Shown in pieces: positions 12,669 through 38,720 of a stretch of 64,000 nt of DNA. The stretch's first letter is position 1. The number at the start of each line of letters is the position of its first letter. The DNA is taken from positions 1 to 64,000 of IMG/VR virus record IMGVR_UViG_3300045131_002298; one strand, given 5' to 3'. The DNA is from a virus. A model generated the notes under the pieces. The model was not told where the DNA came from. It searched no databases and saw only the letters and a list, made by a program, of their open reading frames with translations. The position numbers were made by a program, and so were the translations under genes.

Positions 12669-12962
12669 TTATGCTATATATCCTTCTATATCCAATTGAG
12701 TAGGAACCGCGGGTGAAGTTCCCATAGCCCTAACGTTAAAGTTAAACATTTCAAAACCTTGCATTACTGACATAGCTGAATCTCCTATTATTATAGGTTT
12801 CCCAGTTACTCTCCAGCAGGCTATCTTAGGATGTAGGTCAAAAGACCAAAGATCAAATGCTAACGCCCCTCCGTTTGCTATAACTGCTTCCTCTGAGCAT
12901 ACGGGAGGACCGGCCCCCCAAGTATCTCCAGGAGTTTCAGGTGGAAAATATTTGACTGACAT
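12669..12962 (-). CDS. Small virion-associated paralogue 3
   Basis: 97 residues (MSVKYFPPETPG). It is the third of three tandem related genes. The shared signature is a CWxVTGKxxII segment, then GFEMFNFNV, then a GTSPAVPT ending. Start overlaps the stop of the gene upstream by one base. Two cysteines (CSEE, ACWR) are conserved in position with its paralogues. No known family is recognised; location between baseplate and fibre genes suggests a baseplate decoration or fibre adaptor. Confidence 0.6.
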   Translation of the reverse strand: MSVKYFPPETPGDTWGAGPPVCSEEAVIANGGALAFDLWSFDLHPKIACWRVTGKPIIIGDSAMSVMQGFEMFNFNVRAMGTSPAVPTQLDIEGYIA

Positions 12963-13243
12963 TATGCTGCCCTACTATTACTATTATACAATCCAGGAAG
13001 TCCTGCTAGTGAAGGAACAGCAGGTTGTGTAGTACCTTGTGAGAAGTTAAAATTTATTACTTCCATGCCGTTATGTATTCCCATAGTATTACCTTGAATT
13101 TTAACCCTTAAACCAGTAATTGACCAACATGCCATAGCTATAGTATCTTCAATAACCATTCCTACGTAAGCGGCTCCTGCACATCCTGGACCTCCTAGTT
13201 TTTCCGCGCCCCCTGGAGCAGATCCTATATACTTAGCCCCCAT
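12962..13243 (-). CDS. Small virion-associated paralogue 2
   Basis: 93 residues (MGAKYIGSAPGG). It shares ACWSITGLRVKI, GMEVINFNFSQGTTQPAVP and a Gly-rich start with both neighbours. The family therefore appears to have arisen by tandem duplication. The gene overlaps the next one by a single base, so the three are probably translated together. Function is unknown. Confidence 0.6.
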   Translation of the reverse strand: MGAKYIGSAPGGAEKLGGPGCAGAAYVGMVIEDTIAMACWSITGLRVKIQGNTMGIHNGMEVINFNFSQGTTQPAVPSLAGLPGLYNSNSRAA

Positions 13244-13247
13244 TTTG

Positions 13248-13598
13248 TTATACTCCTACTGTTCCTACTATATTAGTATATGTAGATAATGCGGGTTGTG
13301 TTCCGCTTGTGTGAAAGTTAAAATTCACCATTTCAAAACCAGCCTGGACTGAAAATTCCTTATCATTTATTATTACTGCTCTGCCAGATACTTTCCAGCA
13401 CATCTTTTGAAAAGTATCTACTGGAACTCCGCCTTGAGGTATACCATAATTTCTGTAAACATGAGAAACTACTCCTTCTACGGTAGTGGGCCCATCAAAG
13501 GCAACAGCCCCTGACCCCGCAGCCGCTGTAGAACAAACCCCGGAATTATTAGAAAACACGCCCCCTGGCCCTACACCTGTTATATACTTACCACCCAT
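13248..13598 (-). CDS. Small virion-associated paralogue 1
   Basis: 116 residues (MGGKYITGVGPGG), the longest of the three. Relative to its paralogues it has an extra segment of about 25 residues (HVYRNYGIPQGGVPVDTFQ) before the conserved MCWKVSGRAVII and GFEMVNFNF block. Function is unknown. Its ATG directly follows the TAA that ends the open frame described at 13599-13697. Confidence 0.6.
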   Translation of the reverse strand: MGGKYITGVGPGGVFSNNSGVCSTAAAGSGAVAFDGPTTVEGVVSHVYRNYGIPQGGVPVDTFQKMCWKVSGRAVIINDKEFSVQAGFEMVNFNFHTSGTQPALSTYTNIVGTVGV

Positions 13599-33865: not shown

Positions 33866-33899
33866 AATAAAAAAAGAGCGCGGGTTTTAAGCGCGCTCT
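33866..33899 (-). terminator. Terminator of multi-hairpin RNA
   Basis: Minus strand AGAGCGCG, 9-nt loop, CGCGCTCT, then T-rich tract. Confidence 0.85.
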
Positions 33900-34222
33900 C
33901 CTCGACGACCAAGGATTTCCTTTTTGTTAAATGAAATATTTGCGAAATTTGGTCGTCTAAGTCGAATAAAGTGGCTATTGCTTTTATCCTAATTATTCAA
34001 AAGGATCTCAAAATGGATGATGAAGTATACGCAATAGCCAAACTGTTATATAAGAAATAAATTGGCTACTAGGTTTAACAATAAAAGCTCTTTAAAAGGA
34101 GGTAAAAAACAATAGTAGCCAAACTGCAATTTCAAATAAGGGGCGCTGGGTTAATAGTAGAAGGAGATTTTATGCTATAGAAGAATTAGTTGTGGGCGCG
34201 CCCTTTACCCCTTGACTAATTT
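33866..34222 (-). ncRNA. Multi-hairpin RNA with antisense-RBS loops
   Basis: There is no long ORF from 33647 to 34280. A promoter at 34229-34257 and a strong terminator at 33866-33899 on the minus strand define an RNA of about 357 nt. It has four hairpins, each a 6-10 bp stem closing a 36-51 nt loop. In 5' to 3' order of the RNA the arms are 34198-34203/34141-34146, 34113-34122/34062-34071, 34031-34040/33972-33981 and 33949-33957/33904-33912. Loops 1 and 3 are complementary to SD-plus-ATG sequences (AAGGAGATTTTATG and AAGGATCTCAAAATG); loop 2 is complementary to AAGGAGGT. Hairpins 2 and 3 share stem and flanking sequence. It may be a trans-acting translational regulator. Confidence 0.6.
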
Positions 34223-34228
34223 AAACCT

Positions 34229-34257
34229 AGTCTACCACAGACTTTAACAAAAGTCAA
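34229..34257 (-). promoter_or_regulatory. Promoter of multi-hairpin RNA
   Basis: Minus strand TTGACT (34257-34252), 17 bp ending CTGTGG, TAGACT (34234-34229). The upstream 16-bp dyad is 7 bp away. Confidence 0.75.
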
Positions 34258-34264
34258 GCTTTTT

Positions 34265-34280
34265 TTGCAATTGATTGCAA
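34265..34280 (-). repeat. 16-bp dyad, copy 5
   Basis: TTGCAATCAATTGCAA on the minus strand, directly abutting the stop codon at 34281 and the promoter at 34257. Confidence 0.85.
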
Positions 34281-35386: not shown

Positions 35387-35812
35387 TTACCAGTCTCCTC
35401 CCCCGAATAGCAGCGAGAGCACGTCGAAGGGAAAAACGCACACCCGCTGCACAGCAGAAACGCATATAGGAAGTTGACGCTGAGAAGTACTAACCCATGG
35501 ATATTGCTGCTGACAATAACTATAAGAGCAAGTATCATACATAGGCTGTGAATAATTCTGATAGTAATAAACCTGCTGGGGTCTATATGTTTTTCTTATT
35601 TGTTTTCTAGGCGCGAAATCTCGCTGCTGAGGAAGCCTGTTAACTGATACCTTCTTTTCAGGTTCCTGAGCGCGTCTAATCTTACTCTGATATGCTGAAT
35701 TATTAGGAAATTTAAAGGCAGGAAAATTCAAAGTTTCACCTTGAGGCTTCACCTGCGCGTATGAAAAGCCAGACATCATCAACACTACAAACAATACTAA
35801 AAACTTTTTCAT
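35387..35812 (-). CDS. Exported protein with signal peptide, 141 aa
   Basis: 141 residues. The first 20 residues (MKKFLVLFVVLMMSGFSYAQ) are a clear Sec signal peptide: basic start, hydrophobic core, and an SYA cleavage site. The mature part is rich in Gln, Tyr, Arg and Cys (RKQIRKTYRPQQVYYYQNY, CSYSYCQQQYPW, ICVSAVQRVCVF), so it is likely cross-linked outside the cytoplasm. The gene overlaps the upstream one by 4 bp (ATGA). A phage-encoded exported protein could alter the cell envelope, for example in superinfection exclusion; this is inference. Confidence 0.6.
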   Translation of the reverse strand: MKKFLVLFVVLMMSGFSYAQVKPQGETLNFPAFKFPNNSAYQSKIRRAQEPEKKVSVNRLPQQRDFAPRKQIRKTYRPQQVYYYQNYSQPMYDTCSYSYCQQQYPWVSTSQRQLPICVSAVQRVCVFPFDVLSLLFGGGDW

Positions 35813-36444
35813 TCCATTACTCCTTCTTCCATTTTAACTTGGGGTGCCTTTTGAGGTAACGCACTCTCTCGTTCTCTAAGTAGAATCCATATAGCTTGTT
35901 CTAAATATGAAATATCCTCAAGATAATTATATTTAAAGAGCGCCTCCACTGCAGTCCCTACTCTATAATTAAGAAACCAATCCTCTATTACTTCTATAGG
36001 TTGAAATTCTACCTCATCATAAAAAACAGGGCCGTTAAGTTCATGGCGCGAAAAATTCCGCCCTTCTCCTTCACCAATATTCCCGTTAGTGAACTCATTC
36101 TGCATGTCATCTTTTGTAGGATCATAATCATCCATTTCTTTTTTGAGGCGCGAATTTATGCTCTTCTCCAATGACTCCTCTGTAGTATAATAAAGAAAGC
36201 GATGCACTCCGTCTTCCTCATAACAAAGCACATTATAATTAACAACTAGTTGAGGAGAAGTCTCTCCCTTTTTTGCGCCAATACCCGTGATACCAAAAAT
36301 GATAAGAGAATTTTCCTGAAACAAAGCCTTATTAATCCAATGCTCTAAAAGACGATCCTCTAAAATCTCCCTAACCAGTTTGGGATTTTTGTTGATAAGA
36401 GCGCTCTTTATATCAGTAGTCGGAATATTTTCTACAAGATCCAT
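35809..36444 (-). CDS. Unknown acidic protein, 211 aa
   Basis: 211 residues (MDLVENIPTTDIKSALINK) with GGGAGAT before ATG. It is acidic and mostly helical, with a mid-section EMDDYDPTKDDMQNEF. No family recognised. It is translationally coupled to the exported protein downstream (ATGA) and to the small frame upstream that overlaps its start. It therefore probably belongs to the same accessory transcript. Confidence 0.55.
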   Translation of the reverse strand: MDLVENIPTTDIKSALINKNPKLVREILEDRLLEHWINKALFQENSLIIFGITGIGAKKGETSPQLVVNYNVLCYEEDGVHRFLYYTTEESLEKSINSRLKKEMDDYDPTKDDMQNEFTNGNIGEGEGRNFSRHELNGPVFYDEVEFQPIEVIEDWFLNYRVGTAVEALFKYNYLEDISYLEQAIWILLRERESALPQKAPQVKMEEGVME

Positions 36445-36557: not shown

Positions 36558-36586
36558 AATATACCACAAATTTAAAAGTATGTCAA
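36558..36586 (-). promoter_or_regulatory. Promoter for leaderless ORF and gene 36444-35809
   Basis: Minus strand TTGACA (36586-36581), 17 bp ending TTTGTGG, TATATT (36563-36558). The -35 box overlaps the stop codon (TGA) of the HNH gene 36583-38475. Confidence 0.85.
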
Positions 36587-38475
36587 GCTTTTTTTGCAAT
36601 TGATTGCAAATTAAATTTTCTACTTAAATGATCTACACGAATTTCTTTCTCTCCCCCGCTCTCTACATCGCATATAGCATAAATATTATTTTTCCTCTTA
36701 TAAATCTCCCTTACCTTAAAATCCCCAAATACATCCCCCACTTTACAAAATTTTGTGCCTGCTACTTCTAATGAATTATTCTTACTCATAGTATTGGCAA
36801 CTTCCTTTTTAATACAACCACAAGATTTAATTTTACCTGAAGTTACATCATATAATTTTTTAATATCCTCCTTTCCGCAGTCACATAAACATTTAGCATA
36901 TTTTCGCGCCCCTCCCTCAGTATTCTTTATTCTTACCTCCTTAATTATAAGCTTATTAAATTTTTCTCCTACATGCGTTGAATTTTCGTCAATAGGCCAA
37001 AATGGAAATTCCTTTTCTTTACTTTCTTTAACCTCTTTCAATCTCTCACTAGTAACAGTCATTCTATGCTCTTTAATAGATTCCTTATGATAACAACCAC
37101 AGGATTTAATTACATTAAGATGGGAAAGATTTATAGTGGTTTCATTTCCACAATCACAAGCACACCTCAGTCTATAAATATAATTACCTTTCTCTGTTTT
37201 ACCTTTTATAACTTCTAACACGGTAAGCCTATCAAACTTCTTCCCTACTATTCCTTTAATACTATATTTTTTTTCTGAACTTCCTTCAGTGGTTTCTACT
37301 TTTCCGCCTCTTCCACACCCACAAGATTTCTGACGATCATGAATCAAATCAGAAAGTAATATCTCTTTTTCTGTTACCCCACAATCACAGTCACAAATAG
37401 CATAGCTCCTATTCCCTCTGCCTCTATCTCTAGTAACAATATCTTTTATTATAACTTTCCCAAAACGCTCTCCTATATGCTTCTGATCCTCTCCTCTAAG
37501 ATTATTTCTTCCCGGTGAATACACCTCATCACTAAGAATCTGCTCTACACTCATACCGCTTATATATCTATTTTTCAACGTATCATAATTCTTACCTAAA
37601 AATTCTGCCCACTGCCCAATAGTAAGAGACTTTCCGTCATAAGTTAAAATAATATTCTTAATTGCTCCTGCATCCCTTCTTTCAACTAAAGGAGTAGTAA
37701 GAATATCTTCCGGAGACCATCCTGCGTCATACCTCCAAACTAAAGCTCTAGTTTCTATTCCAGTATACAAGGACCATTCTGGTATAGATCTAACCTCTCC
37801 TTTATACTCAACAGTAATATCCTTTAAATTGCGTTCAGTTTTTCTTTCTCTAGGAGGTGCTAATAACTCATTTCCTCTTTTATGCTCCGTATGATATCTA
37901 GTTTTTAAAGTAGATAATTTTATACCCTTTTCTTCTGCCCACGCTCTAAGGGTCTGATTTTTTCCTTCCCATTCGTAATAGATTATATTGTCCCTATTTT
38001 CGGATTGTTCCTCATGCGTAACCCACCTACAATTCTCTGGAGAGTAATCTCCGTCATTACTTATTCTATCTATCTCATAATCATTTTTAGGCTCTGGCTT
38101 TTCCCCCATATCTAATAAAAAGTTTTCGAATCCTCTTTCCTCCAGCCACCTATCACATACCTTTGTACCTTTTAGCCCATAAAAGGGATAGCCATCACTA
38201 TTAGGATTATAGCAGCGATCTTTAGCATGGTTCCAAGCATTATACTCAGAAGGAAAATTTCTACTAGTTACATTAGGGTCTACAGAATTACGCTTATTAC
38301 ATCCACAGGAAGTGGATCTTCCCTTTTTAACACTATATAATTCCATGTCTACCACAGCCCCGCACTCACACAAGCACCTACAAAATCTTCTCCTGCCCTG
38401 CTTGTCTGGTGTTTCCTTCTTAAAAACCTCAAGGATAGTAAGCTTTCCGAAAACCATTCCTACTAAATTTTCCAT
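36583..38475 (-). CDS. Large HNH-family protein with four zinc modules, 630 aa
   Basis: 630 residues (MENLVGMVFGKLTILEVF), about two to three times the size of its relatives. Order: zinc module 1 at about 33-60; one HNH module at about 77-165 (YNAWNHAKDRCYNPNSD, YEIDRISNDGDYSPENCRW); three DNA-binding modules at about 165-312 (EKGIKLSTLKTRY, TGIETRALVWRYDAGW, LGKNYDTLKNRY); then zinc modules 2-4 at about 355-555, each with CxCxCG and SCGC. Thus it looks built by shuffling modules. The HNH module lacks the YGGRGI run (here YGLKGTKVCDRW), so activity may be altered. Own promoter at 38508-38536. The 16-bp dyad encodes its last residues (NLQSIA). Confidence 0.7.
   Translation of the reverse strand: MENLVGMVFGKLTILEVFKKETPDKQGRRRFCRCLCECGAVVDMELYSVKKGRSTSCGCNKRNSVDPNVTSRNFPSEYNAWNHAKDRCYNPNSDGYPFYGLKGTKVCDRWLEERGFENFLLDMGEKPEPKNDYEIDRISNDGDYSPENCRWVTHEEQSENRDNIIYYEWEGKNQTLRAWAEEKGIKLSTLKTRYHTEHKRGNELLAPPRERKTERNLKDITVEYKGEVRSIPEWSLYTGIETRALVWRYDAGWSPEDILTTPLVERRDAGAIKNIILTYDGKSLTIGQWAEFLGKNYDTLKNRYISGMSVEQILSDEVYSPGRNNLRGEDQKHIGERFGKVIIKDIVTRDRGRGNRSYAICDCDCGVTEKEILLSDLIHDRQKSCGCGRGGKVETTEGSSEKKYSIKGIVGKKFDRLTVLEVIKGKTEKGNYIYRLRCACDCGNETTINLSHLNVIKSCGCYHKESIKEHRMTVTSERLKEVKESKEKEFPFWPIDENSTHVGEKFNKLIIKEVRIKNTEGGARKYAKCLCDCGKEDIKKLYDVTSGKIKSCGCIKKEVANTMSKNNSLEVAGTKFCKVGDVFGDFKVREIYKRKNNIYAICDVESGGEKEIRVDHLSRKFNLQSIAKKA
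36594..36609 (-). repeat. 16-bp dyad, copy 6 (3' end of HNH gene)
   Basis: TTGCAATCAATTGCAA on the minus strand, in frame as LQSIA, 8 bases before the promoter's -35 box. Confidence 0.85.
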
Positions 38476-38507
38476 AATATTTTCCTTCCTTCTTTTTATT
38501 TAAAAGC

Positions 38508-38536
38508 AGTATACCACAAGCTATCGAAGATGTCAA
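38508..38536 (-). promoter_or_regulatory. Promoter of 630-aa HNH gene
   Basis: Minus strand TTGACA (38536-38531), 17 bp ending CTTGTGG, TATACT (38513-38508). Excellent match. Confidence 0.85.
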
Positions 38537-38691
38537 GCTTTTTTTTCATTAATTTGAAAATAAATTATCGAACTTCGATAAAAAAGCAGAGTTTTACATT
38601 CATATTTTTACATAAATTATTATAGACAAATTCGCAGTGGCGCTGACCTTCCTAGCCTGTAAAAGCTTCCATAAATTTAATATATTTTGAC

Positions 38692-38720
38692 AAAAAAAAA
38701 GCGACGCATTTAGCGTCGCT
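38692..38720 (-). terminator. Terminator after tail sheath gene
   Basis: Minus strand AGCGACGC, 5-nt loop, GCGTCGCT then nine T. Lies 22 bp after the sheath stop. Confidence 0.88.

What the first reader, a model, noticed from the sequence alone, without database searches (positions are those of the whole stretch)
33866..34222. A 357-nt RNA of four hairpins whose loops are antisense to ribosome binding sites
The minus-strand transcript is bounded by a good promoter and terminator and has no long ORF. Four stem-loops (stems 6-10 bp, loops 36-51 nt) follow each other. Three loops hold the complement of an SD sequence, two of them with an ATG at proper distance (AAGGAGATTTTATG and AAGGATCTCAAAATG). 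Hairpins 2 and 3 share stem core (TTGGCTA) and the flank TAGCCAAACTG but differ in loops, as if the loops were variable payloads in one scaffold. It may be a multi-target translational repressor against host or rival-phage mRNAs. I found no exact target in this window. An alternative is that the plus strand carries tiny ORFs (loop 3 would encode MDDEVYAIAKLLYKK), but the terminator faces only the minus strand.
Basis: partly seen in the sequence, partly recalled or inferred. Interest (0 to 1): 0.8.

Follow-up and report, generated by a model that had tools for sequence, protein, structure and literature searches.

The report
Phage RNA of ribosome-site-antisense hairpins
A virus of bacteria carries what looks like a small non-coding RNA built of four hairpins whose exposed loops are complementary to the start signals of messenger RNAs, so it probably switches off translation of a set of genes, possibly the virus's own early genes.

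Summary
On the minus strand, a promoter (TTGACT-17-TAGACT, extended -10) and a strong intrinsic terminator bound a ~355-nt non-coding stretch that folds into four large-loop hairpins (z -4.9). Relatives keep promoter, H1, one H2/H3-type hairpin, H4 and terminator. H1's stem shows two double compensatory changes while its loop stayed 43/44 identical. The tiny plus-strand ORFs are not conserved. The promoter belongs to a phage-wide family that also drives a Ro60/Y-RNA-like locus.

No convincing target lies in the window's own record. The relative's genome carries ~18 small genes whose initiation regions share AAAAAAGGAGAT. Its variable loop pairs with these as a class (p = 3e-5; 1 of 276 control sequences does as well). 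The window's loops 2 and 3 do so more weakly, loop 1 only marginally.

Best reading: a modular anti-initiation-region sRNA of a phage, working like streptococcal csRNAs, Listeria LhrC and P1/P7 c4 RNA, possibly aimed at its own early genes. Transcription, host and targets remain unshown.

The parts
34265..34280 (.). 16-bp palindrome TTGCAATTGATTGCAA next to the promoter, centred near -53; one of 13 copies in the genome, possible regulator site
   Evidence: also upstream of the Y-RNA-like array promoter, and kept in the relative
34229..34257 (-). promoter TTGACT-N17-TAGACT with extended -10 (TGTGG), start near 34222
   Evidence: conserved in G001, G002 and G003
33869..34222 (-). whole predicted non-coding RNA, about 355 nt
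34137..34207 (-). hairpin 1; stem with two double compensatory changes in the relative, loop conserved 43/44
34160..34174 (-). anti-initiation segment of loop 1 (RNA CAUAAAAUCUCCUUC; target GAAGGAG-ATTTT-ATG), predicted unpaired 0.95
34062..34122 (-). hairpin 2, a module with the same flanks as hairpin 3; absent from the relative
34094..34103 (-). anti-SD segment of loop 2 (RNA ACCUCCUUUU), predicted unpaired 0.79
33972..34040 (-). hairpin 3, scaffold kept but loop changed in the relative
33999..34015 (-). anti-initiation segment of loop 3 (RNA CAUUUUGAGAUCCUUUU), about half paired in the predicted ensemble
33904..33957 (-). hairpin 4, identical in the relative; no SD complement
33869..33899 (-). 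intrinsic terminator, 8-bp GC-rich stem and U tract, identical in the relative

Best explanation
A phage-encoded, trans-acting, non-coding RNA represses translation by antisense pairing. Three of its four large loops display a stretch complementary to a Shine-Dalgarno sequence and, in loops 1 and 3, also to the start codon. Pairing would hide the initiation region from the ribosome. The hairpins are modules: a scaffold (CAG-TTTGGCTA ... TAGCCA-MTTTATT) is duplicated or lost and its loop replaced, which would change targets. The likeliest targets are the phage's own cluster of small, promoter-bearing, early-type genes, which in the relative share the leader AAAAAAGGAGAT; one RNA could then turn down many genes at once, or shut down those of a superinfecting sibling phage. 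Shown by sequence: promoter, terminator, predicted fold, conservation pattern, loop content, and class preference of the relative's loop. Inferred: transcription, repression, identity and timing of the targets.
For: Fold well beyond shuffles. Relatives keep promoter, hairpins and terminator. H1 has 2 pairs changed on both sides and none broken, and slid registers give none. H1 loop has 1/44 changes against 12/37 in stem and flanks (Fisher p 4e-4). The orthologous H3 hairpin kept its stem and an SD+ATG complement while the rest of the loop changed. Anti-SD stretches in loops 1 and 2 are predicted open. The relative's early-type initiation regions carry AGGAGAT in 12/21 against 1/120 elsewhere. 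The relative's variable loop pairs better with early-type than with other GGAG-bearing initiation regions: p 3.3e-5, top 5 of 74 all early-type, 4e-7 at the best window; 0 of 220 genomic anti-SD control windows and 1 of 56 pseudo-loops reach 3.3e-5. Own loops 3 and 2: p 0.001 and 0.002. Signals sit mainly on loops 1-3, not on H4 or most linkers.
Against: No transcript data. Only two distinct complete versions of the RNA exist in the collections searched, so covariation rests on two pairs. The early-type cluster lies in the relative; the window's record ends without any such cluster, so its own loops were tested on another phage's genes. Loop 1 does not fit the early-type profile and its class preference is weak (p 0.016 relative, 0.06 own). 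Counting five loops, the empirical support for the class preference is only about 0.02-0.04. The loop 3 segment is half paired in the predicted ensemble. One stretch near the terminator also gives p 0.002. The early nature of the cluster is inferred from its layout.
Confidence: 0.45

Rival explanations
1. The same kind of antisense repressor, but aimed at host mRNAs (for example defence or housekeeping genes with strong initiation regions).
For: Loops 1 and 4 are conserved between two phages that differ elsewhere, as a constant host target would predict. No exact complement longer than 15 nt lies elsewhere in either phage genome.
Against: An extended loop 1 complement gives only 4 scattered genomic hits. 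The host is unknown: the capsid protein has no close relative in genome contigs, so this could not be tested properly.
Confidence: 0.27
2. The RNA is a structural or protein-binding RNA (for example a client of the phage's Ro60-like protein, or a decoy) and the SD complements are incidental to pyrimidine-rich loops.
For: The same promoter type and palindrome precede the Ro60/Y-RNA-like locus. Individually, loop SD+ATG complements are only p 0.01-0.09 against shuffles.
Against: It lacks the motifs shared by the Y-RNA-like units. The relative's changed loop again holds an SD+ATG complement, and the conserved part of loop 1 includes it.
Confidence: 0.18
3. It is an untranslated leader or insulator of the downstream tail tube gene, with hairpins and terminator acting in cis.
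For: The tail tube gene starts 220 nt downstream on the same strand; the gap between them is well conserved.
Against: A strong terminator lies before the gene; hairpin loops vary and one hairpin is gained or lost between relatives; a leader does not need anti-SD loops.
Confidence: 0.07
4. The plus strand carries tiny ORFs with their own Shine-Dalgarno sequences.
For: SD-ATG spacing is good in loops 1 and 3.
Against: Peptides are not conserved (MDDEVYAIAKLLYKK against MKYIRF-stop; loop 1 reads ATG CTA TAG); promoter and terminator face the minus strand.
Confidence: 0.02

Closest known systems
Streptococcal csRNAs (CiaRH regulon; PMC3091779)
   Same: Small RNAs from strong promoters with unpaired stretches complementary to both SD and AUG (CAU in 53 of 61), thought to block initiation
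   Different: 51-202 nt, usually two stem-loops with the antisense stretch between them; CiaR-controlled bacterial genes; no series of large-loop hairpins
Listeria LhrC and other UCCC-motif sRNAs such as S. aureus RNAIII (PMC4132741)
   Same: Several anti-SD sites, some in loops, within one RNA, each able to bind an SD region
   Different: Redundant, near-identical UCCC motifs; here loops of 36-51 nt differ from one another and include anti-start sequences; not phage RNAs
P1/P7 c4 antisense RNA (as described in PMC12197685)
   Same: Phage-encoded RNA whose loop sequences pair around a phage ribosome binding site and block translation, giving immunity
   Different: c4 silences one known gene (ant); here the neighbours are unrelated genes, there are several different loops, and the targets may be a whole set
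Bacterial and phage Y RNAs
   Same: Phage non-coding RNA under the same promoter type as this phage's Y-RNA-like array
   Different: None of the shared motifs of the array units, no tRNA-like part

Membership tests
trans-acting anti-initiation-region sRNA (functional class) | independent transcription unit with promoter and intrinsic terminator, no long ORF | tested here: met
   (sequence only)
trans-acting anti-initiation-region sRNA (functional class) | exposed segments complementary to SD and start codon | tested here: met
   loops 1 and 3 (loop 3 half paired), SD only in loop 2
trans-acting anti-initiation-region sRNA (functional class) | identified target mRNAs | tested here: inconclusive
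   no single target significant in the own genome; class preference in the relative
trans-acting anti-initiation-region sRNA (functional class) | repression of target translation | not testable with these tools
   needs an experiment
streptococcal csRNA | CiaR-regulated promoter and the conserved csRNA nonamer | not tested
   no csRNA model was used; the promoter belongs to a phage family with a TTGCAAT palindrome
LhrC | match to the described RNA family with redundant UCCC motifs | tested here: not met
   no Rfam match at gathering score, none relevant at relaxed threshold; SD complements here are UCUCC, CCUCC and AUCC rather than a repeated UCCC
P1/P7 c4 RNA | encoded next to the ant gene it silences | tested here: not met
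   neighbours are a tail tube gene and an uncharacterised gene; no Rfam match
Y RNA | motifs shared by the Ro60-associated units of this phage | tested here: not met
   motifs present in the array, absent from this RNA in both phages

The most novel reading that the evidence does not exclude
A phage carries an exchangeable antisense array: one RNA with a series of scaffold hairpins whose loops are swapped to match the common leader of a whole set of early genes, giving one-step translational shut-off of that set, or immunity against siblings.
Probability: 0.22. Interest if true: 0.75.

Novelty: new variant of a known kind. Interest (0 to 1): 0.5.

Why it matters
Few trans-acting antisense RNAs are described for phages. 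A modular RNA that silences a whole early gene set through a shared ribosome-site leader would be a new way for a phage to time its programme. The predicted set of targets makes it directly testable.

Tried and rejected
Exact-complement search in both phage genomes: nothing beyond 15 nt and no in-register start site in the own genome. Loop 3 against the initiation region of gene 13248-13598 (-31.2 kcal/mol, with SD, ATG and first codons paired in register) looked striking and is the best site in the own genome, but 27% of pseudo-loops do as well, so it was dropped. Target of loop 1 in bacterial genomes: chance or coding hits. Host identification through the capsid protein: nothing. More relatives by promoter motif, scaffold motif, loop 1 and H4 patterns: only the same few contigs; other hits are unrelated or coding. 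Continuation of the own record's right end, or of the relative's small-gene cluster, in other contigs: none. Rfam: no relevant match. A profile of early-type initiation regions supports the relative's variable loop (top 1.8%) and weakly own loops 2 and 3, not loop 1.

Full report
What is there. The window is part of a 102,741-bp virus record, a tailed phage with a contractile-type tail (sheath and tube families), a UvsX-like recombinase, a DnaB-like helicase and its own sigma factor. The host is unknown. In the structural gene region, between the tail tube gene (33646-33167, minus) and an uncharacterised gene (34703-34281, minus), lies a 634-nt gap without ORFs of 60 aa or more. The minus strand of the gap carries a promoter at 34257-34229 and a strong terminator at 33899-33869. 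The transcript between them would be about 355 nt. It folds much better than shuffles (z -4.9) into four hairpins with loops of 51, 41, 49 and 36 nt. No other intergenic stretch of the genome has such a run of hairpins with anti-SD loops.

Is it transcribed? There are no expression data. The promoter alone would be unconvincing, but its form, AAAAAAAGCTTGAC-N13-TGTGGTAnAnT, recurs in this phage: before the Y-RNA-like array, before an HNH endonuclease gene (36583-38475) and before gene 35809-36444, with a variant before gene 51802. At three of these sites and here it is preceded by the palindrome TTGCAAT(CA/TG)ATTGCAA. Promoter and palindrome are kept in the relatives.

Relatives. Only three other contigs carry the RNA: G002 (98 kb), G001 (36.9 kb, identical in this region) and G003, which is cut off inside hairpin 1. 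In G002 the promoter, hairpin 1, one hairpin of the H2/H3 type, hairpin 4 and the terminator are all present. In hairpin 1 the stem changed from GGGCGC/GCGCCC to GGCUGC/GCAGCC: two double compensatory changes with none broken, and slid registers show none. The loop changed at 1 of 44 positions against 12 of 37 in stem and flank (p 4e-4). Pairing kept in the stem and sequence kept in the loop is what a displayed loop predicts. With only two distinct sequences, the shuffle control cannot add significance.

Modules. Own H2, own H3 and the relative's single hairpin share CAGTTTGGCTA on the 5' side and TAGCCA[A/C]TTTATT on the 3' side. The relative's loop shares with own loop 3 mainly the part that is antisense to SD-spacer-ATG (own AAAAGGA-TCTCAAA-ATG, relative AAAAAAGGAG-TTTCAAC-ATG). 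The side that would pair downstream of the ATG is different.

Targets. No strong target appears in the own genome. The best single candidate (loop 3 with gene 13248-13598, -31.2 kcal/mol) is not beyond what antisense sequences of random initiation regions achieve (27%). The relative's record, unlike the window's, continues into a 10-kb cluster of about 18 small genes on one strand. Many of these genes have an individual promoter, and they share a uniform initiation region, close to AAAAAAGGAGAT-N4-ATG. AGGAGAT occurs in 12 of 21 initiation regions there and in 1 of 120 elsewhere. Compared with all other GGAG-bearing initiation regions of that genome, the relative's variable loop pairs preferentially with this cluster (p 3.3e-5; the five best of 74 are all in it; 4e-7 at the best window). 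Of 220 genomic anti-SD windows none reaches 3.3e-5, and of 56 pseudo-loops made from other initiation regions one does. Own loops 3 and 2 show the same direction (p 0.001, 0.002) although the genes are from the other phage. Loop 1 is weak (0.016 and 0.06) and H4 shows nothing. Along the RNA the preference peaks on the loops, with one further weak peak near the terminator. The window's record stops without any corresponding cluster, so the direct test is missing.

Mechanism. I conclude that this is most likely a trans-acting RNA that hides ribosome binding sites, with the phage's own early-type genes as the best-supported class of targets (0.45 for that whole statement; about 0.7 for anti-initiation antisense action on some target, phage or host). 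Transcription, repression, timing and target identity are inferred, not shown.

Comparison. It works like streptococcal csRNAs, whose unpaired regions hold anti-SD and anti-AUG sequences (PMC3091779), like LhrC with several anti-SD sites in one RNA (PMC4132741), and like the P1/P7 c4 RNA, a phage antisense RNA acting on a ribosome binding site (PMC12197685). It could not be filed as a member of any of them, and no Rfam family matches. The large, distinct, exchangeable loops in a repeated scaffold are the new element.

Noticed in passing
G000:69506-71831 (+), i.e. L014:5506-7831; relative G002 about 37,900-38,700 (-): A TROVE (Ro60/Rsr) gene (Pfam E 3e-23) preceded by about six tandem Y-RNA-like units (GGCGTAGA..AGAG[A/T]TACTTC ... 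CGTTTTTTCC), the last with a tRNA-like insert (Rfam tRNA hit). Units are conserved in the relative while inserts differ. An array of this size in a phage looks unusual; Ro60-like genes themselves occur in 91 phage records.
   Followed up: partly
G000:74897-76072 (+), L014:10897-12072: An RtcB RNA ligase gene 3 kb downstream of the Ro60 gene: with the Y-RNA-like array this resembles the bacterial rsr-yrl-rtcB RNA repair operon on a phage.
   Followed up: no
13 sites, e.g. 19904, 24064, 24166, 32013, 34265, 36594, 42092, 51716, 55818 in the window; 10 in G002: A 16-bp palindrome TTGCAAT(CA or TG)ATTGCAA, many copies between genes, four of them just upstream of promoters of one type; possible site of a phage regulator.
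   Followed up: partly
G002:2,200-10,200 (-); L016: Cluster of about 18 small genes in repeated units (GGACCCCGGCTCCGCCACCCCG, then promoter TTGACTATAAAA..TATGnTATACT, then AAAAAAGGAGAT), 46% G+C in a 38% genome; the repeat was found in no other viral contig.
   Followed up: partly
35323-35223 (-): A second promoter-bounded short stretch: promoter TTGACA-17-TATACT, hairpin ACCTTCCCTAGAAGGT and a terminator hairpin whose loop GGGTTCTCC is conserved while its stem changes in the relative.
   Followed up: no
12669-13598 (-): Three small adjacent genes with similar starts (MSVKYF, MGAKYI, MGGKYI), without family match; the relative has a diverged set.
   Followed up: no
G000:99880-101098; L015: 1.2 kb without ORFs, with repeats around GTCGACTTCTCAG, at the right end of the record where the relative instead has its small-gene cluster.
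   Followed up: no
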